Source of the DNA: Pelagibacteraceae bacterium AG-313-A04
GTDB taxonomy: Bacteria > Pseudomonadota > Alphaproteobacteria > Pelagibacterales > Pelagibacteraceae
Reading direction: 5' to 3'
DNA: 64,000 bases
Assembly (NCBI GenBank): GCA_003284275.1
Contig: QBVU01000002.1
Span: 62,001 to 126,000, forward strand
Shown here: piece by piece, positions 26,997 to 34,632 of the stretch
Layout of the letters: each line of letters begins with the position of its first letter
Position numbering within the stretch: position 1 is the first letter of the stretch
Notes under the pieces: generated by a model
The model's database searches: none
What the model saw: only the letters and a program-made list of their open reading frames with translations
Told to the model about the DNA's origin: nothing
Translations under genes and position numbers: made by a program

Positions 26997-27072
26997 TGGT
27001 GGGCGGTAAAGGACTCGAACCTATGACCCTCTCGGTGTAAACGAGATGCTCTACCAACTGAGCTAACCGCCC
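26997..27072 (-). tRNA. tRNA-Val (UAC)
   Basis: A complete cloverleaf with encoded CCA, 76 bases. The acceptor GGGCGGT pairs with ACCGCCC, and the anticodon arm CTCG-TTTACAC-CGAG gives UAC. The first 55 bases plus 10 bases upstream are repeated exactly at 31406-31470, so this gene is the integration target of the adjacent islet. Its 5' flank beyond 27082 is islet DNA, which supplies its likely promoter (27092-27119). Confidence 0.96.
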
Positions 27073-27082
27073 TATTAAATAA
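27018..27082. repeat. Direct repeat, nuo-proximal copy (att-like, inside tRNA-Val)
   Basis: This 65-bp segment is identical to 31406-31470 in the same orientation, at an offset of 4388 bp. It runs from the T-loop of tRNA-Val back to the tRNA 5' end and 10 bases of upstream flank (TATTAAATAA). At the nuo side the chromosomal tRNA continues; at the other side islet DNA begins. This is the pattern left by site-specific recombination at a tRNA gene. Confidence 0.92.
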
Positions 27083-27091
27083 TTACTGTGT

Positions 27092-27119
27092 TTTATATCT
27101 TTTAGTATAATAACGTCAA
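27092..27119 (-). promoter_or_regulatory. Putative promoter of tRNA-Val/tRNA-Asp, inside the islet
   Basis: On the minus strand TTGACG (27119-27114) and TATAAA (27097-27092) are separated by 16 bases, a close match to the sigma-70 consensus. Initiation would fall about 12 bases before the mature tRNA-Val. The sequence lies outside the 65-bp repeat, so it belongs to the islet and would replace the original tRNA promoter. Confidence 0.6.
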
Positions 27120-27169
27120 GTTATAATAGCCTTAAAAATACTCATATAACAATTTTTTGGTTACAAAGA

Positions 27170-27187
27170 GTGACGAGAGAGTGACGA
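27170..27187. repeat. Paired GTGACGA repeat, tRNA-proximal end
   Basis: GTGACGA occurs at 27170-27176 and 27181-27187, period 11 bp, with GAGA between. The same pair, same orientation and same period, is found at 31345-31362. It begins 4 bp beyond the stop of the DUF3883-type gene. One helical turn between copies suggests two protein subunits bound on the same face of the DNA. Confidence 0.75.
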
Positions 27188-27190
27188 AAA

Positions 27191-28090
27191 TTAATTGTTT
27201 TTTTTTGAAATTAAAAATCCATCATTTTCAGTTTTCCAAATATTTGAATTATCAATTAAATTTTCTTTAATATTATTAATCATTAAAATTTTATCATAAT
27301 CAAATTTTTTGGAGTTACTTAAGTCAACAGGCAATAAATACAAATAATAATTATGATTATATATCTTTGAGATATTGTATTCATTAGGAGATAGGTGAAA
27401 TTGATAGTTAGTTTTACTTACTGCCTTTACCTCAATGTAAATTTTTTCACAATTTTCATTATAACTTTGAATATCATATCCTGCGGACACATCCTCAAGT
27501 GCTATATGGAGGACTTTAAGTGTTTTATCTATTTTCTTTAATTTTAAAACCTCATTTTCATAAACCAATTTTTCAGCGTCCTGACCTAGTTGTTCTTTAG
27601 ATTTAAGCTCTTCTTTTAATTTAAAAGGTGACTTTTTTTGTTTCTTAATTTTATTTAGTATTTCATTATTTATAATAATGTATTCATCGTTTTCGTTTTT
27701 AATTATTCCTAAACTAATTAAAAAGTTCCTCATGTCACTTGTTTGATAATTAAAATATTTATCTGGTTTGAATTTAAATTTATTATCTTTATCTAATGTA
27801 AAATTTTGTAAATATTGCTTTAATAAAACAAAATTAATATTATTTTTTTGAAAAATTTTATTAATTAAAATTTCTTTAAAACTTTTTGTTTTATCTTTTA
27901 ATACTTTGATTTTATCTCCCTCGATTTCAAAAATATCATTCTCAAATAAAAAATTTAAATTTTCTCTTACATGAGTGTGATCTCGCGAATAATTTATTTT
28001 TATATCTGACGTGTCTCTACCCTCAAGTGATAACTCGTAAAGTTTTTCTAAATTTTGAAAATTAATATTTTCGAATAAATCAAAATTCAT
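27191..28090 (-). CDS. DUF3883-type nuclease-like protein of the islet
   Basis: Third gene of the islet operon, 299 residues. The N-terminal half (1-150) has no motif I recognise. Residues about 168-250 resemble DUF3883: LGQDAEKLVYENEVL, then VSAGYDIQSY (Asp206), IYIEVKAVSKT (Glu220, Lys222) and LSPNEY. The spaced Asp and ExK are the pattern of PD-(D/E)xK nucleases, and all three residues are present, so activity is possible. DUF3883 domains often accompany helicases in defence loci, but the substrate here is unknown. The start overlaps the helicase gene by 4 bp. Confidence 0.8.
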   Translation of the reverse strand: MNFDLFENINFQNLEKLYELSLEGRDTSDIKINYSRDHTHVRENLNFLFENDIFEIEGDKIKVLKDKTKSFKEILINKIFQKNNINFVLLKQYLQNFTLDKDNKFKFKPDKYFNYQTSDMRNFLISLGIIKNENDEYIIINNEILNKIKKQKKSPFKLKEELKSKEQLGQDAEKLVYENEVLKLKKIDKTLKVLHIALEDVSAGYDIQSYNENCEKIYIEVKAVSKTNYQFHLSPNEYNISKIYNHNYYLYLLPVDLSNSKKFDYDKILMINNIKENLIDNSNIWKTENDGFLISKKNN

Positions 28091-29937
28091 ATATTTAAAT
28101 CAGAATAAAGATTATCCCAGTCTTCATCTTCAGGGTGGCTGAATGTTAAATTATCACTTTCTATTACTTGCATTTGTCTATTAGCTTTTTGAAAAACACG
28201 TTCATAAACTTTCGTATCAATTGAGTTTTCATAATGTAAAAAATGATAATAAACAGGAAATTTTTCAGAACCTCCAACACGATGAATTCTATCTAGTGAT
28301 TGAAGAAATTCTGATGTGTTGTAGTTCATGTCATAATAAATAGCATTATGACAAGCCTTGTGTAATGAAATTGACTCTGAGCAAGCCTGTGGAATTGCGA
28401 CTAAAGCATTCAAGTTTGAAAGTTTGTCATTAAATTCATCGCTAATTTTCTCTCTGTCGTCTAATTTTGTTTTTCCAGTTATAACCTTAATATTTATTCC
28501 TTCGGCATTTAATTCTTTTAATATTAAATCTATTGTTTTTAAATGAGTTGACCAAATTAATACTTTTTCGTTTTTTTTAATTAATGTTTGACAAATATTT
28601 TTAAGATATTCGATTTTAGCTGGTTTTTCATTTAAATCGTATTTGGCAATTAGATTTTGTAAATCTTGGTCATTAAGTAAATTTTCATCGCCTTTACGTA
28701 AATCTGGAGGAATCGCTGTAATCAAATTTTTCACGTAAGAACATGTTTGTCGTAGTCTTATCATTCTTGCTCTCTGAATTTTTTTTATCAATTCAATATT
28801 TTTTAAGTAGTCAGATTTTGTATAAAATTTAATTTTGGTAATTATAGCCTTATGGATTTTGCCTTCTATAGGATTCATTTTAACTAAATATGGTTTGATA
28901 AAATTAGGTTTTGATAAACCTAACTGTTTTTTTGTAACCCTTGTGTAAAAAGGATAAATCTTTTCATTTATTAAATCAGCTGCTTGTTCGAAATTTTTAT
29001 TGTCAATAAATACTTCAATTTCAGCTTTTTTACGTGAATTAATTATTTCATCATTTGGATATAAAAAATCAAAATAATTATAAAAATCTTTAAAATCTTG
29101 TGGCATTGGTGTCCCAGTTAAAATAATTTTATACTTACTAAGATAACGCAATTCAAGAATTGACCTTGACCAAAGGCCTCCAATCTTTTTTATGTTATGT
29201 GCTTCATCAATAACTAATAAAAATTTTTTTGTTAAGAAAAATTCTTTTAATAAGCTCAAATCGTTAGTAACTGTTGAAAAATGACAAGCGAATACCTCGC
29301 TCTTACTTTTACCTTCGTATAATCTTTTTCTTTTAACTTTATTTTCATCTAAAATTTTTAACCTTGAATCTCTTCCTAAATTTAATTTGAATTCTCTATT
29401 CCAAGACAGATAACAATTTTTTGGTCCTATCAAAAAAATAGCATCGATTTTATTTTGTAGTTTTAGATATTCATAAAAAGCTAATACAACAGATGTCTTT
29501 CCACTTCCTGGAACAGAAAAATTTGCAGCACAATCTGAATTGAATAAGTGAAAAAGGCTTTTTTTTTGATGGTCTTTTAGTTCTCTTTTTAGATAGTTTA
29601 TCTTTTTATCAAAAGAAGAAAAATTTTTATCATTTAGATTGTCTTTGATTTTTTCTAATCTTTTAATCTTTTCCTTAAATGAACTATCTTTTTCATTTTT
29701 TTCTTTTAAAATTTTTTTAGTATTATCACAAATAGTGAAATTATAATCATTATCTTTAAAAAATTGAATTAATTCTTTTAAATTTAAATCATTTGACTTA
29801 GTTTCAAATTTTAAGTTGTGATCATCGATGAGCTTAAAACCAAAATATTTTATTTGAAGTTTTGTACTAGTTGGTATTTTTTCTTTTGTAAGTAATGAGA
29901 ATTTGTTATTGCGGTATTCTAAGTGAAGAGACACCAA
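28087..29937 (-). CDS. SNF2-type superfamily 2 helicase/ATPase of the islet
   Basis: Middle gene of the islet operon, 616 residues. After a non-helicase N-terminus (1-115) come SVPGSGKTS (Walker A, about 141-149), VIDEAHNIK (DEAH, 244-247), LTGTPMP (273-279) and, in the second RecA domain, IWSTHLKT (about 461-468) and QSLDRIHRVGG (motif VI, 546-556). All motifs needed for ATP hydrolysis are intact. No nuclease or methylase domain is fused. The frame opens with TTG (29937) then GTG (29934), straight after the ParB-like gene's TAA, and no early ATG exists, so translation is probably coupled. Confidence 0.9.
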   Translation of the reverse strand: MVSLHLEYRNNKFSLLTKEKIPTSTKLQIKYFGFKLIDDHNLKFETKSNDLNLKELIQFFKDNDYNFTICDNTKKILKEKNEKDSSFKEKIKRLEKIKDNLNDKNFSSFDKKINYLKRELKDHQKKSLFHLFNSDCAANFSVPGSGKTSVVLAFYEYLKLQNKIDAIFLIGPKNCYLSWNREFKLNLGRDSRLKILDENKVKRKRLYEGKSKSEVFACHFSTVTNDLSLLKEFFLTKKFLLVIDEAHNIKKIGGLWSRSILELRYLSKYKIILTGTPMPQDFKDFYNYFDFLYPNDEIINSRKKAEIEVFIDNKNFEQAADLINEKIYPFYTRVTKKQLGLSKPNFIKPYLVKMNPIEGKIHKAIITKIKFYTKSDYLKNIELIKKIQRARMIRLRQTCSYVKNLITAIPPDLRKGDENLLNDQDLQNLIAKYDLNEKPAKIEYLKNICQTLIKKNEKVLIWSTHLKTIDLILKELNAEGINIKVITGKTKLDDREKISDEFNDKLSNLNALVAIPQACSESISLHKACHNAIYYDMNYNTSEFLQSLDRIHRVGGSEKFPVYYHFLHYENSIDTKVYERVFQKANRQMQVIESDNLTFSHPEDEDWDNLYSDLNI

Positions 29938-31296
29938 TTAATTTTTCCATTTATCTTTGAGTTTATTAATATTTTTCTTTGTTCCTTTTTTTATTTCATA
30001 AAAATTTTTCTTAATTTCATTATTTTTTGTTTCTATATTTCGGCAAATTTCAAACGCTTTATCAACGTCTGGTATTTTCATTTGTTCTATTTGATCAAGA
30101 TCTAAATCTTCGTGATTTAATTTTTGTAAAGCCTCATTTAATCTATTTATTGGATCTTGTTGATCTTTTTCCCGTGTCGATAAATTTTGTATTTTCTTTA
30201 TTACGTTAAGCACTTGTTCTTCTTTTTCCTCATGCCATTTTAATTCTCTTTCATCTGGATCAGTTATATTTGGATCAACATCCTCAAGTTTACCAATTTT
30301 TAATACATCTTTTTTTTGATTTTTAATCCATTTAGGTAATTGTCTTATTAAAAATCTATTATCTCCTACACCTAATTCACTTGTCTCTTTTATTTTAATA
30401 AAATTAAATGCAGCGTTTTTAATAATTCCAATCTCATTTTTTTCTATATTATGTTCAACTAGGAATTTATCGTTTTCAAATTTCGAAGTAATATTCTTAC
30501 CTAATTCCTCAAAAGACATCCATCTGTTAGATATTCTATTATAATCTCCTTTTACATTATTTTCCTCGAGAAACTCCTCCATTAATTTTATTGGCTCAAA
30601 AAATTCTAAATTAAATTTTTTTAAATTTTGTTTAAATTTTTTAGGATCAACATCGCCATAAGTTGGATCATCTTTTAAAAGTTCTTCTAAAGGTATGCCT
30701 GCTTTAAAGTATGAGTAATAAGTTAATGCTTTATTCATTTTACTATATTCTGACTTTCCGTCTCTATAAACCTGATATCTATTTTCTAGAATTGCTATAT
30801 CTTTTACTGTTGGTCTTTCTGGACTGTCTGATCCTGGAAGTATCACAACTTTTAATCTATTATATTTTTCGTTTGGATAATCTTTGCTTAATTCTTGAAA
30901 TGCCCATTTTCTTCTATTTCCATTAATTAAAAAACCATCTGCAGTCATAACTGCAGGCTCTGATTGGCCATCTTTTGCCAAAAGCTTTTTCAAATCCTGA
31001 TTTTTTTTTGGATCAGATTTTGAAATATAATCAGAAATTATTTTTTGTGTATCGTCACTGTTTTTATCTAATGACCCTTTAATTTTTTCATGAGATAGTA
31101 TTTGGTGCTTTATTCTTCCATTGTCTAATCTAAACTTGCAATATTCAACAGGAACTTCATATACTTCGGATTTTTTATCTTTAATTTTCCAATCTCTGTA
31201 TGGAATAACAAATTTAGCGCCTGTTGGGTTTTTTACTGAATTTATATCTTTTTCTTTAACTGGATTTATTTCAATTTGGCTTTGAACAATGGTCAT
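29938..31296 (-). CDS. ParB/sulfiredoxin-fold protein of the islet
   Basis: First gene of the islet operon, 452 residues. Residues about 45-180 look like a ParB/Srx domain: a preceding EPAVMTADG strand, GNRRKWAFQEL (126-136, matching the GxxRxxA nucleotide-binding motif) and AILENRYQVYRDGKSE (168-183, resembling the ParB ENxQR segment). A helical middle region and a very charged, coiled-coil-like C-terminus (about 380-452) follow. Related domains occur in ParB CTPases and in DNA-modification and defence loci (for example DndB- and DpdB-like proteins). No parA and no plasmid genes are nearby, so plasmid partition is unlikely. Confidence 0.75.
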   Translation of the reverse strand: MTIVQSQIEINPVKEKDINSVKNPTGAKFVIPYRDWKIKDKKSEVYEVPVEYCKFRLDNGRIKHQILSHEKIKGSLDKNSDDTQKIISDYISKSDPKKNQDLKKLLAKDGQSEPAVMTADGFLINGNRRKWAFQELSKDYPNEKYNRLKVVILPGSDSPERPTVKDIAILENRYQVYRDGKSEYSKMNKALTYYSYFKAGIPLEELLKDDPTYGDVDPKKFKQNLKKFNLEFFEPIKLMEEFLEENNVKGDYNRISNRWMSFEELGKNITSKFENDKFLVEHNIEKNEIGIIKNAAFNFIKIKETSELGVGDNRFLIRQLPKWIKNQKKDVLKIGKLEDVDPNITDPDERELKWHEEKEEQVLNVIKKIQNLSTREKDQQDPINRLNEALQKLNHEDLDLDQIEQMKIPDVDKAFEICRNIETKNNEIKKNFYEIKKGTKKNINKLKDKWKN

Positions 31297-31313
31297 AGTC
31301 TATTTCAAAATTA

Positions 31314-31342
31314 ATCTTAATCGATATATTTCTTTTTCTCAA
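31314..31342 (-). promoter_or_regulatory. Putative promoter of the islet operon
   Basis: On the minus strand TTGAGA (31342-31337) and TAAGAT (31319-31314) are 17 bases apart, leaving about 18 bases to the ATG at 31296. The GTGACGA pair (31345-31362) lies directly upstream of the -35 box, a position suited to an activator or an autoregulator. Confidence 0.5.
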
Positions 31343-31344
31343 CA

Positions 31345-31362
31345 GTGACGATTGAGTGACGA
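31345..31362. repeat. Paired GTGACGA repeat, distal end
   Basis: GTGACGA at 31345-31351 and 31356-31362, period 11 bp, with TTGA between. It mirrors the pair at 27170-27187 in sequence, spacing and orientation. It lies just upstream of the islet operon promoter and 43 bases inside the direct repeat. Recombinase arm sites or operator sites are both possible. Confidence 0.75.
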
Positions 31363-31405
31363 ATATGGGTTGTAATTTAAAAAAGATAGGATTTGCAGGG
31401 GAAAA

Positions 31406-31460
31406 AACCTATGACCCTCTCGGTGTAAACGAGATGCTCTACCAACTGAGCTAACCGCCC
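31406..31460 (-). pseudogene. Truncated tRNA-Val copy at the islet edge
   Basis: These 55 bases equal the 5' part of tRNA-Val, from G1 to the first T-loop bases, after which the sequence departs (TTTTCCCC in place of CGAGTCC). The 3' T-stem strand, the 3' acceptor strand and CCA are missing, so no mature tRNA can form. A weak promoter (TTTACT, 17 bases, TATATC, 31505-31477) upstream is probably the ancestral tRNA-Val promoter. Confidence 0.9.
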
Positions 31461-31470
31461 TATTAAATAA
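31406..31470. repeat. Direct repeat, distal copy (att-like)
   Basis: Perfect 65-bp partner of 27018-27082. Beyond 31470 chromosomal sequence resumes; inside 31406 is islet DNA. Recombination between the copies would excise 4388 bp and restore tRNA-Val with its former 5' flank. Confidence 0.92.
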
Positions 31471-31559: not shown

Positions 31560-32090
31560 ATGATTTTAACTTGTAATTCATGCGATAAAAGATTTGTTGT
31601 TCCGGATGCAGCTATAACAGCTACTGGAAGAATGGTACAATGCGGTTCGTGTGGAAATAAATGGAAACAATTTCCTGAAGATGAAAGTAAAAAAACTAAA
31701 TCAGTTTCTACGACTAAAAAAATTGCTTCTAAACCTAAACCAGTTCAGCAGAGAATAAAAATACCAAAAAAAAAGGTGAAGAAGAGTAACGTAAAAAAAA
31801 CTAGAGAAATCAGTTTATACTCACCAGAATATTTAGCAAAAAAACATGGTATTAATTTAGATAATACAGAACAAAAAAAAACAATTAGTACCAAAGACAG
31901 AGTATCTTTTGGTTTTTACAACTCGCTTATTTTGTTTTTGATAATCATAATTGCTTTTTCAAAAGGGTTATATTTTTCACAAGAATTTATAGTTCAAAAT
32001 TTTCCATTCGCTGAATATTATTTAGACTATTTCTTTGAAAGTATAAGAAATTTATTTGAAATTTGGAAAAATTTAATTTCTAGTTATTAG
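31560..32090 (+). CDS. Zinc-ribbon (MJ0042-type) membrane protein
   Basis: The 176-residue protein begins MILTCNSCDKRFVVPD and QCGSCGNKWKQFP, a CxxC...CxxC zinc ribbon of the MJ0042 type common in alphaproteobacterial and myxobacterial proteins. A basic, Lys-rich linker (about 45-95) follows, then one membrane helix (about 122-140, YNSLILFLIIIIAF) and a short C-terminal domain. Function is unknown; the layout suggests a cytosolic zinc head tethered to the membrane. Its last 11 bases overlap the end of the convergent 850-residue gene. It is the first chromosomal gene after the islet. Confidence 0.75.
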   Translation: MILTCNSCDKRFVVPDAAITATGRMVQCGSCGNKWKQFPEDESKKTKSVSTTKKIASKPKPVQQRIKIPKKKVKKSNVKKTREISLYSPEYLAKKHGINLDNTEQKKTISTKDRVSFGFYNSLILFLIIIIAFSKGLYFSQEFIVQNFPFAEYYLDYFFESIRNLFEIWKNLISSY

Positions 32091-34632
32091 ACTCTAATTC
32101 TTTAATATTTATAAAATTATCAGACAAATTTGAGTTATTTTTTTTTATATCTTCATAAAAATTCCAAGCCAAAACCAAAAGAGTATTATTTTTATCTTTA
32201 ATAAATGATTTTTTTCTAATTGGTATTTTAACACCAGGTATATATTTATTATGTTTCAATTTATTATCTTCTACAATGAAATCAATTTCATTAGAAATTC
32301 CATAAAAATTTAATGCGGTTGATGCTTTTGCTGGTGCACCGTATCCGATAATTTTTTTACCATTTTTTTTAATTTTTTTTAAATTATTCAAAACATTTTC
32401 TCTGATCTTATAAACCTTGTTTCCAAAATTTTGATAAGTTTTATAATCTTTTATCCCAAAGTTTTCTTCCTCCTTGAGCATATTTTTTACACTTTTTTCA
32501 ATTTTTATCTTCTTATCTTTTTTTACGTAAACTCTTATTGAGCCTCCATGTGTTTCTATCTTTTCGGATTTATATATTTTTGCATCAAACTGTTTAAAAA
32601 AATAAACTAAAGAAGTTAAAGACCAATAATTATAATGTTCGTGATAAATATTATCAAAGGTAAAATCTTTTAGCGTATTCATCAGGTATTGAACTTCGAT
32701 AATTATAGTTCCTTTTTTACTAATTAAACTTAACATGCAATCTGCCATTTCTTTCAATTTATCGGAATGAGCAAATACATTAGATGCTAAAATTAAATCT
32801 GCATTTTTTTTTATTTTTTTAAGATTCTTTTTTTCTAAAAATCCATTAAAAGTTCTTATTTTATTCTTATTTGCTAATTTAGATAAGTTTTTAGCAGGCT
32901 CTATCCCTAAAACTTTTTTAAATCCCATCTCTATGAAGGGTTTAAGAGCAATCCCATCATTGCTACCTATATCTATAATATATGATTTTTTTTTATTAAG
33001 TTTTAGTTCCTTATAATATTTTTTTGCTGCATTAATAAAATGATCTCTGAAAATTTTTGAAGTAGATGAGGTGTAAAGATAATTCGAAAACATTTTTTTT
33101 GGTTCTACAGCTACAGATAATTGACAATTATGACATTTTTGACAATAGTTTACTTCTAAAGGATATAAATCGCTTTTTTCATCTTTTTTATTTATTAAAT
33201 TATTTGCCAGGGGTTGGTATCCAAGAGAGAGAACTCTTTTAAGATCAGTGCTACCACATGATCTGCACTCAAATTTATAACATTTTAATAATAATTCTTT
33301 TTCTTTTTCTTCTACAATTGTCTTTCTTATTGTATGAGTAATTCCATAATTTTCATGATCCCTTTCACCTCTTACAAGATTTAGAAACGTTGTGTCTTTC
33401 GTAAAAACCATTGTGTGAGCTACATTTGGTTTTATGACTGAAAGTTGACCTGCGTTTACCACTTGAGTTATTTTTGGAGCGTTTGGATTAATTATATCTT
33501 GAAATATCTCTATGATTTGCCCTTTAGTAAACAGACATTTTTGCTCTTGTTGTGGATGAAAATGATTGGCTCTCATCGATCCTTTTTTAGACTCAATTAA
33601 TCCAATCAAATTTATTGGCTCAGTCAGCTCGTGGTTACTTATCGCGCCTCTATTGTCTATAAAAAGATTATCACCGTCTTTTGCATACTCTAAATCTTTT
33701 GTTAAATTTTGCTTAGACCATTTTTGAATCATTTCTTTAATATTTTGATCTAAATTATAAAGAAATTTAAAACCTGTACTTAATAATTTTTTATTTGATA
33801 AAGAAAAACCTAAATTTGGAACTTCATCGTTGGTCTCTTTTAATAGTATTTTAGGATTATATTTTTTACAAATCCCAGCAACTGCTTTAACTGTAAGTGT
33901 TTCTTTTGTTAAATTAAAAACGTCTGAATTAATTTCATCTTTTTCTTCCATAAATTTAAAACATCGAGCTACATCTATCAGTGGCACAAGGCTTTTGATC
34001 TGTCTTCCACCGGCGAATAATTTTAGTGTTCCGTTTTGTGAAGTTATTTTTGAAAATAGATTGGGCATTATGTCAATTCTCATAGAGTCAGTTGAATAAC
34101 CGTATACTGAGCCAAGTCTCAAAATTACAAAATTTTTACCTGATTTCTTTAATTGATTTTCATTTATAGCTTTTGAGGTAGCGTAGGACAAAACAGGTTT
34201 CGTATTTTCATTTTCCTCTATATCAGTTTTAACCTCATTAATTCCCTCATAAACTACATGTGTAGAGGGAAAAATTATTTTACATTTATCATTTATAACA
34301 TCTAAAATATTTTGAGTTCCTTTTTCCGCAACTTCTTTTATCTTTTCGTCTTGTGATTTAGACGACTCACTTTTTGTTCTAGGAACATCTGTAATACCTG
34401 CCAAGTGATGCACAACGTCTGCGTCTTCGAAAAAGCTTTTTACCAAACTTTTGTCCAAAATATCACCTTGAACAAATTCCATATTCCAATTTCGAATCTG
34501 ATTTACTCTCTCAGAAATAAATCTATTATCTATAACAGTAATTTTATGATGCCAGCTTACGCCAGAATACAATTTACACAGTTCTGTGCCTATATAACCT
34601 AAACCGCCAGTTATGATGATTTTTTTTTTCAT
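32080..34632 (-). CDS. Fused NAD-dependent epimerase / cupin / C-methyltransferase, sugar modification
   Basis: One 850-residue frame joins three enzyme types. Residues 1-310 are a Rossmann epimerase/dehydratase (GGLGYIG, 9-15; YATSK, Tyr150 and Lys154). Residues 320-440 are a WxcM-like cupin (ANHFHPQQEQ, IKPNVAHTMVF), similar to sugar ketoisomerases. Residues 450-850 are a zinc-headed sugar C-methyltransferase (CRSCG and CQKCHNC, then the SAM motif IIDIGSNDG and a C-terminal GYGAPAKASTALNF domain). These are normally separate genes, so the protein probably makes an unusual branched or deoxy sugar for the cell surface. The order of reactions is inferred. A divergent glycosyltransferase lies 50 bp away. 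Confidence 0.85.
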   Translation of the reverse strand: MKKKIIITGGLGYIGTELCKLYSGVSWHHKITVIDNRFISERVNQIRNWNMEFVQGDILDKSLVKSFFEDADVVHHLAGITDVPRTKSESSKSQDEKIKEVAEKGTQNILDVINDKCKIIFPSTHVVYEGINEVKTDIEENENTKPVLSYATSKAINENQLKKSGKNFVILRLGSVYGYSTDSMRIDIMPNLFSKITSQNGTLKLFAGGRQIKSLVPLIDVARCFKFMEEKDEINSDVFNLTKETLTVKAVAGICKKYNPKILLKETNDEVPNLGFSLSNKKLLSTGFKFLYNLDQNIKEMIQKWSKQNLTKDLEYAKDGDNLFIDNRGAISNHELTEPINLIGLIESKKGSMRANHFHPQQEQKCLFTKGQIIEIFQDIINPNAPKITQVVNAGQLSVIKPNVAHTMVFTKDTTFLNLVRGERDHENYGITHTIRKTIVEEKEKELLLKCYKFECRSCGSTDLKRVLSLGYQPLANNLINKKDEKSDLYPLEVNYCQKCHNCQLSVAVEPKKMFSNYLYTSSTSKIFRDHFINAAKKYYKELKLNKKKSYIIDIGSNDGIALKPFIEMGFKKVLGIEPAKNLSKLANKNKIRTFNGFLEKKNLKKIKKNADLILASNVFAHSDKLKEMADCMLSLISKKGTIIIEVQYLMNTLKDFTFDNIYHEHYNYWSLTSLVYFFKQFDAKIYKSEKIETHGGSIRVYVKKDKKIKIEKSVKNMLKEEENFGIKDYKTYQNFGNKVYKIRENVLNNLKKIKKNGKKIIGYGAPAKASTALNFYGISNEIDFIVEDNKLKHNKYIPGVKIPIRKKSFIKDKNNTLLVLAWNFYEDIKKNNSNLSDNFINIKELESNN

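What the first reader, a model, noticed from the sequence alone, without database searches (positions are those of the whole stretch)
27191..31296. ParB-like + SNF2-type helicase + DUF3883-type operon: candidate undescribed defence system
Three genes with 0-4 bp spacing encode a ParB/Srx-fold protein (GNRRKWA motif), an intact SNF2-type ATPase and a protein with DUF3883-like D...ExK residues. Each domain type is known from phage-defence or DNA-modification loci. I know of no named system with only these three. Dpd and Dnd also use ParB-like proteins, and Dpd a SNF2 helicase, but the DNA-modifying enzymes they need are absent. A self-contained sensor, motor and nuclease set on a mobile islet would suit anti-phage defence. 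The function is inferred.
Basis: partly seen in the sequence, partly recalled or inferred. Interest (0 to 1): 0.87.

Follow-up and report, generated by a model that had tools for sequence, protein, structure and literature searches.

The report
Methylase-less restriction islet in SAR11
A small mobile DNA insert in a SAR11 ocean bacterium carries three genes that together look like an ATP-driven DNA-cutting defence machine; relatives of these genes occur in very different bacteria, usually beside a DNA-methylating gene that this mobile marine version lacks.

Summary
The three-gene operon is real and intact. It is the whole cargo of a 4.4-kb insertion in a tRNA-Val gene, bounded by perfect 65-bp direct repeats. 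Nine congeners show the empty site. The proteins are a ParB-like protein, an SNF2 motor and a PD-(D/E)xK nuclease of the NOV_C/DUF3883 family.

The trio is not unique. It recurs in the same order in other SAR11, in other Alphaproteobacteria, in a Streptococcus prophage and Bacillota viral contigs, and in Streptomyces. A ParB-SNF2 pair is common on Enterococcus and other plasmids. Outside the window's own clade, most relatives sit next to a DNA methyltransferase (m5C or N4/N6), often with Vsr, MutH or BanI/DpnII-type enzymes. In some Bacillota the NOV_C nuclease is replaced by a PLD nuclease fused to SNF2. This points to an ATP-dependent restriction family for which I found no name in PADLOC 2.0 or the open literature.

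The window's trio belongs to a separate SAR11 clade of three members. All three lie on mobile elements, and none carries a methyltransferase in the sequence seen. Best reading: an ATP-driven restriction module in a methylase-less form. How it spares host DNA is unknown. Defence activity is inferred, not shown.

The parts
27018..27082 (.). left att repeat: 65 bp covering the 5' half of intact tRNA-Val and its 5' flank
   Evidence: perfect 65-bp direct repeat with 31406-31470; tRNA-Val 26997-27072 intact; single copy at the empty site in congeners
27083..31470 (.). inserted islet (4388 bp: cargo plus one repeat copy)
   Evidence: absent from nine congeners, where tRNA-Asp/tRNA-Val lie about 100 bp from the zinc-ribbon gene
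27169..27187 (+). tandem AGTGACGA pair just inside the left end (possible recombinase arm sites)
   Evidence: two sites in the window, 0 expected by chance; found in none of the other 396 order genomes searched
27191..28090 (-). NOV_C/DUF3883 protein, 299 aa: predicted PD-(D/E)xK nuclease, N-terminal part possibly two winged helices
   Evidence: PF13020 6.8e-14; G169, E173, GYD206, E220-x-K222 and E237 invariant in eight relatives; AF2 pLDDT 80-93 over the core; Foldseek matches Hjc resolvases at prob 0.98-0.99
28087..29937 (-). SNF2-family ATPase/translocase, 616 aa, TTG start
   Evidence: PF00176, PF00271; motifs conserved in relatives
29938..31296 (-). ParB/Srx-like protein, 452 aa (GNRR motif 126-129, LE...Q motif 170-175, long helical C-terminus)
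   Evidence: invariant R61, G121, G126, N127, R129, E171, Q175, Y184 in 15 relatives; PDB profile hits to ParB; Foldseek to Spo0J/ParB-N
31344..31362 (+). tandem AGTGACGA pair just inside the right end
31386..31453 (-). partial tRNA-Val copy left by integration
   Evidence: Rfam tRNA hit at 33.7 bits; not called a tRNA by ARAGORN
31406..31470 (.). right att repeat
   Evidence: its right flank matches the original upstream flank of tRNA-Val in congeners

Best explanation
The islet carries an ATP-driven DNA restriction module. Proposed steps: the ParB-like protein (nucleotide-binding ParB/Srx fold) and/or the winged helices of the NOV_C protein recognise foreign DNA; the SNF2 motor is loaded and translocates along dsDNA; the NOV_C PD-(D/E)xK domain cuts. 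Across the family this is the restriction half of R-M loci, with an exchangeable nuclease (NOV_C or a PLD fused to SNF2) and an exchangeable methyltransferase (m5C or N4/N6). The window belongs to a SAR11 mobile-element clade that carries the restriction half without a methyltransferase. It must therefore tell host from foreign DNA in another way, most simply by cutting DNA that carries foreign modifications (as type IV enzymes such as SauUSI do), or by relying on a methyltransferase already in the host. Shown by computation: gene content, intact motifs, predicted fold of the ParB-like and NOV_C proteins, recurrence, methyltransferase linkage in relatives, absence of a methyltransferase from this element. 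Inferred: complex formation, translocation, cleavage, anti-phage role, mode of self-recognition.
For: Same trio, same order, in many diverged loci. A methyltransferase lies beside it in G066, G120, G390, G806 and G571 (N4/N6) and in Javan191, L051, L053-L056, Rhizobium and Azospirillum (m5C). Restriction-type neighbours: BanI/DpnII-type enzyme before the trio in Javan191 and a MutH-type third gene in L. plantarum, Vsr and MutH/Sau3AI in other loci. Nuclease swap: PLDc_2 fused to SNF2 in Priestia and L. plantarum, where NOV_C is missing. NOV_C core fold. Control: 63 other SNF2 loci in viral contigs have no ParB, NOV_C or methyltransferase of these types. The methylase-less SAR11 clade is supported 100/100, and its elements hold no methyltransferase in the sequence seen.
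Against: No function was tested. The ParB assignment rests on weak profile E-values and a low-confidence model (pLDDT 56). No Foldseek hit of either model reaches E 0.001. Only three methylase-less SAR11 members are known; the host assemblies of two of them are about 87% complete, and L052 is a metagenomic contig read over 13.7 of 15.4 kb. The Streptomyces locus also shows no m5C or N4/N6 methyltransferase, and the Enterococcus loci none of these two types, so the link is strong but not universal.
Confidence: 0.72

Rival explanations
1. Restriction half that depends on a methyltransferase elsewhere in the host genome (for example the CcrM-like N6 enzyme shared by SAR11, or the resident m5C enzyme) for self-protection, so it is an ordinary R-M split between element and chromosome.
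For: G000 has an m5C methyltransferase on the same contig about 49 kb away, and four of the five SAR11 trio genomes tested have a PF01555 enzyme of about 360-375 aa away from the trio. Relatives of the trio use m5C or N4/N6 enzymes.
Against: The m5C gene is next to what looks like its own type II endonuclease (my reading of the ORF, TdeIII-like). G239, a carrier of the same clade, has no PF00145 hit. The CcrM-like enzyme is not specific to carriers of this clade. A mobile element relying on host methylation would kill hosts lacking it.
Confidence: 0.25
2. Maintenance or mobilisation genes of the element (ParB-type partition or recombination helper) rather than defence.
For: ParB fold; in the SAR11 clade the trio rides on integrated elements, two of which carry an integrase.
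Against: No ParA in the islet and no integrase within it; relatives sit beside methyltransferases and restriction enzymes; a nuclease and an SNF2 motor are not partition parts; the trio occurs in many unrelated contexts.
Confidence: 0.1
3. Inactive remnant of an R-M island whose methyltransferase was lost.
For: No methyltransferase and no integrase in the islet.
Against: All three ORFs are intact with invariant catalytic residues and coupled starts; two other carriers at 41-55% identity are also intact and also lack the methyltransferase, so the state is old and maintained.
Confidence: 0.05

Closest known systems
CglI / NgoAVII ATP-dependent R-M (R- and H/N-proteins plus methyltransferase)
   Same: Separate helicase-like motor and nuclease subunits, with a methyltransferase gene in the same system (PMC4267653, PMC7913695); PLD nuclease also appears in some members of the present family
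   Different: Motor is DEAD-family with Z1 and C domains, recognition by a B3 domain, no ParB-like subunit; the window trio has a PD-(D/E)xK nuclease and no methyltransferase
SauUSI (type IV)
   Same: SF2 motor with PLD nuclease and no methyltransferase; cuts modified DNA (PMC7913695); precedent for a methylase-less ATP-driven restriction enzyme
   Different: Single chain with its own target recognition domain; no ParB-like protein; PLD not PD-(D/E)xK
Dpd 7-deazaguanine system (DpdE helicase)
   Different: No deazaguanine insertion genes in the islet; the match is far below the family cut-off (NF041062: 23 against 500 bits)
PbeABCD / CxC ABC-ATPase system
   Same: SF2 motor similarity (PbeA, 58 bits); some such loci have methylases (PMC10853773)
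   Different: Defined by a CxC ABC ATPase and DndE; PbeA is an HKD nuclease-helicase fusion; none of these in the islet
PD-T4-1 and other DUF3883/NOV_C proteins
   Same: NOV_C nuclease domain (2.5e-16); DUF3883 was proposed as a restriction-endonuclease domain (PMC3710099)
   Different: Only the C-terminal domain matches; no ParB or SNF2 partner in that model

Membership tests
ParB/Srx superfamily | GxxR-type nucleotide-binding motif followed by LE..Q motif | tested here: met
   GN(R)R and LE/Q columns (nearly) invariant in 15 relatives; PDB profile and Foldseek hits to ParB
ParB/Srx superfamily | nucleotide (CTP/ATP) binding | not testable with these tools
   needs biochemistry
Chromosome/plasmid partition ParB | ParA partner next to it | tested here: not met
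   no other sizeable gene in the islet
SNF2 translocase | intact SNF2 and helicase-C domains with Walker A/B and arginine-finger motifs | tested here: met
PD-(D/E)xK nuclease (NOV_C) | conserved D...ExK in the right fold | tested here: met
   D206, E220, K222 invariant; predicted core matches Hjc
Type II/III-like R-M system | cognate DNA methyltransferase in the locus | tested here: not met
   no m5C or N4/N6 methyltransferase in the window islet, the G239 island or the L052 contig stretch; met in most relatives outside this clade
Type IV restriction | cuts only modified DNA | not testable with these tools
   needs phage/plasmid assays
CglI/NgoAVII | R-protein with PLD and B3 domains | tested here: not met
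   no such Pfam domain in the three proteins
DISARM | DrmA/DrmB core | tested here: not met
   only weak SNF2-type matches; no further genes in the islet
Dpd | DpdA and deazaguanine genes | tested here: not met
   only three genes in the islet; not searched elsewhere in the genome
Dnd/Ssp/Pbe | DndCDE or CxC ABC ATPase with DndE | tested here: not met
   only three genes in the islet; not searched elsewhere in the genome
Zorya | ZorA/ZorB motor | tested here: not met
   only an SNF2-type match to ZorD; no further genes in the islet

The most novel reading that the evidence does not exclude
A mobile-element branch of a widespread, unnamed ParB-SNF2-nuclease restriction family has given up methylation and recognises foreign DNA by a nucleotide-gated ParB-like protein, i.e. 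restriction whose self/non-self signal is neither its own methyl mark nor a known modification-reading domain.
Probability: 0.3. Interest if true: 0.82.

Novelty: new variant of a known kind. Interest (0 to 1): 0.62.

Why it matters
If right, this is a cross-phylum ATP-dependent restriction family that current defence models miss: the ParB-like subunit matches no PADLOC 2.0 model. It has exchangeable nuclease and methyltransferase parts and is also present on conjugative Enterococcus plasmids. The SAR11 branch would show how one of the most abundant and most streamlined bacterial groups carries restriction as a 4-kb plug-in, and it poses a clear question: how a restriction machine without a methylase spares its host.

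Tried and rejected
Scans of viral contigs with the window ParB or the two-member SAR11 alignment (A1) alone found nothing; broad 8- and 15-member alignments were too divergent for the pattern search. The genome-contig scan found only the G239 locus. The structure model of the ParB protein is poor in its N-terminal half and is used only as support. The profile search of solved structures with NOV_C gave nothing, so its fold rests on the predicted model. A plain SNF2 search of viral contigs returned mostly unrelated phage helicases, used as a control. Promoter and terminator scans were at or near chance and are not used. Considered and rejected as identity: Dpd, Dnd/Pbe, DISARM, Zorya, partition locus (see membership table).
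Full report
WHAT IS THERE. The finding's three ORFs are exactly where stated: ParB-like 31296-29938, SNF2 29937-28087 with a TTG start, NOV_C/DUF3883 28090-27191, all on the minus strand, with 0 bp and a 4-bp overlap between them. SNF2 (PF00176, PF00271) and NOV_C (PF13020) are secure. The ParB-like protein has no library hit on its own.

THE ISLET. The trio is the only sizeable coding content of a bounded insertion. A perfect 65-bp repeat, 27018-27082 and 31406-31470, covers the 5' half of tRNA-Val and its flank. The left copy belongs to an intact tRNA-Val; the right copy is a partial tRNA. In nine congeners tRNA-Asp/tRNA-Val lie about 100 bp from the zinc-ribbon gene that lies right of the islet, and the sequence just right of the islet continues the congeners' tRNA flank. 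So 4388 bp were inserted. Just inside each end lies a tandem AGTGACGA pair, seen in none of the other 396 genomes of the order that were searched. There is no integrase in the islet, and the assembly's only phage-integrase-type gene is on another contig (a 322-aa frame, Xer-sized, my reading). The islet is therefore probably moved in trans, or has lost its integrase.

RECURRENCE IN SAR11. Of 397 genomes of the order, two carry the ParB-like protein and five an SNF2 match. In G239 (AG-898-C07, a Pelagibacteraceae assembly) the same trio, at 41, 48 and 46% identity, sits at one end of a 17.3-kb island between 46-bp repeats of tRNA-Thr, with integrase and primase-like genes. An IMG/VR contig (L050/L052) carries it at 46, 55 and 47% with another integrase. 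The G239 and L052 elements also share two further genes but not their integrases. None of the three elements has an m5C or N4/N6 methyltransferase in the sequence seen.

RECURRENCE ELSEWHERE. G066, G120 and G806 (SAR11), G571, Rhizobium, Azospirillum and the viral contig L051 (proteobacterial), Streptococcus phage Javan191 and the Bacillota contigs L053, L055 and L056, and a Streptomyces plasmid all have ParB-SNF2-NOV_C in this order. G390 and L054 are cut by contig or locus ends but show the NOV_C-methyltransferase junction. The Bacillota loci (Javan191, L053-L056) are close relatives, not independent. All of these except Streptomyces have a methyltransferase: N4/N6 immediately convergent or about 0.5 kb away in SAR11 and G571, m5C adjacent or within about 5 kb in the others. 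G066, G120, G390 and G806 thus show a second, MTase-bearing type inside SAR11. Three more Bacillota loci (Priestia, L. plantarum, Exiguobacterium) have ParB plus an SNF2 protein of about 850-860 aa with an N-terminal PLD domain (above the Pfam cut-off in two, just below in the third), no NOV_C, and an m5C methyltransferase. Enterococcus plasmids, 50 of the 74 plasmid records matched by the SNF2 search, have a homologous SNF2 protein; in the three inspected it follows the ParB-like gene and an 815-869-aa protein. Restriction-type neighbours are frequent: a BanI/DpnII-type enzyme in Javan191, a MutH-type protein in L. plantarum, Vsr and MutH/Sau3AI.

CONTROL. 63 other SNF2 loci of viral contigs, mean 12.4 kb, found by SNF2 similarity alone, contain no ParB-like protein, no NOV_C and no methyltransferase by the same profiles. 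The methyltransferase profiles were built from members of this family's loci, so distant methyltransferases could be missed. The association is specific to this SNF2 family.

TREE. On the SNF2 tree (19 rows) the three methylase-less SAR11 proteins form a clade (100/100) on the side of the Bacillota loci. The MTase-bearing SAR11 proteins form another clade (100/99) on the side of the alphaproteobacterial loci. SAR11 therefore acquired the module at least twice if the split is read at face value. The root is unknown and end branches are long.

PROTEIN FOLDS. NOV_C: G169, E173, GYD206, E220-x-K222 and E237 are invariant over eight relatives. The model (eight sequences, mean pLDDT 77, 80-93 over the core) matches Hjc resolvases at Foldseek probability 0.98-0.99 (TM to target about 0.5), with R.SwaI, AvaII, FokI and SPARDA nucleases further down. 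The E-values are weak and the top E-value rows are unrelated matches with rmsd above 15. The N-terminal half reads as two winged helices from its secondary structure (my inference). ParB: a 15-member profile has ParB structures 7o0n, 7bnr, 7bnk and 4umk as its best hits (E 0.003-0.011) and Spo0J 1vz0 further down (E 0.47). The low-confidence model still has Spo0J and pNOB8 ParB-N as its six best Foldseek hits.

MECHANISM. The nuclease changes (NOV_C or PLD) and the methyltransferase changes (m5C or N4/N6), while ParB-SNF2 stays. That is what is expected of the motor/recognition core of an ATP-dependent restriction enzyme. Published enzymes show that one plan can appear as R-M and as type IV: CglI and NgoAVII have separate PLD-B3 nuclease and ATPase subunits plus a methyltransferase, and SauUSI has PLD, SF2 motor and a modification-reading domain with no methyltransferase (PMC4267653, PMC7913695). 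The methylase-less SAR11 clade could be the type IV-like branch of this family, or could borrow host methylation. G000 does have an m5C gene 49 kb away, but it appears to have its own endonuclease next to it, and G239 has no m5C gene at all in its 87%-complete assembly.

KNOWN OR NEW. DUF3883 as a restriction domain and SNF2 in R-M operons are published (PMC3710099, PMC2292703). No paper found in the searches made describes the ParB-SNF2-NOV_C set as a system, and PADLOC 2.0 has no model that fits the ParB-like subunit. DefenseFinder and subscription papers could not be checked. I rate it a new variant of a known kind (restriction), unusual for its ParB-like subunit and for the methylase-less mobile branch.

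Noticed in passing
27169-27187 and 31344-31362: Tandem AGTGACGA pairs at both ends of the islet, in the same orientation, found in no other SAR11 genome searched; possible binding sites of an unknown recombinase that moves this integrase-less islet.
   Followed up: partly
26997-27190: The insertion is at the 5' half of tRNA-Val, so the native upstream region of this tRNA is now 4.4 kb away and its promoter must come from the element's end.
   Followed up: partly
G000 contig 2: 40391-42490 (outside the window; L027 9386-11487): m5C methyltransferase convergent with a 272-aa protein that looks like a TdeIII-type restriction enzyme: a second, probably complete type II R-M pair in the same genome.
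   Followed up: partly
L016, L018, L023 (Enterococcus plasmids): ParB-like plus SNF2 pair preceded by an 815-869-aa protein of unknown function, without NOV_C or PLD; homologous SNF2 proteins are in 50 Enterococcus plasmid records.
   Followed up: partly
L019 6138-7004, L024 6171-7013, L051 6156-7022: Unannotated 280-289-aa gene directly before the ParB-like gene in alphaproteobacterial loci; no Pfam hit for the two tested; possibly a further restriction enzyme.
   Followed up: no
L052: Marine mobile element with integrase next to tRNA-Ser, a GIY-YIG-like repeat protein and the trio; shares only small genes and a primase-like gene with the G239 island.
   Followed up: partly
32080-34632: 850-aa protein that reads as a fusion of an NAD-dependent epimerase, a sugar-isomerase-like cupin and a methyltransferase, next to a zinc-ribbon gene.
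   Followed up: no
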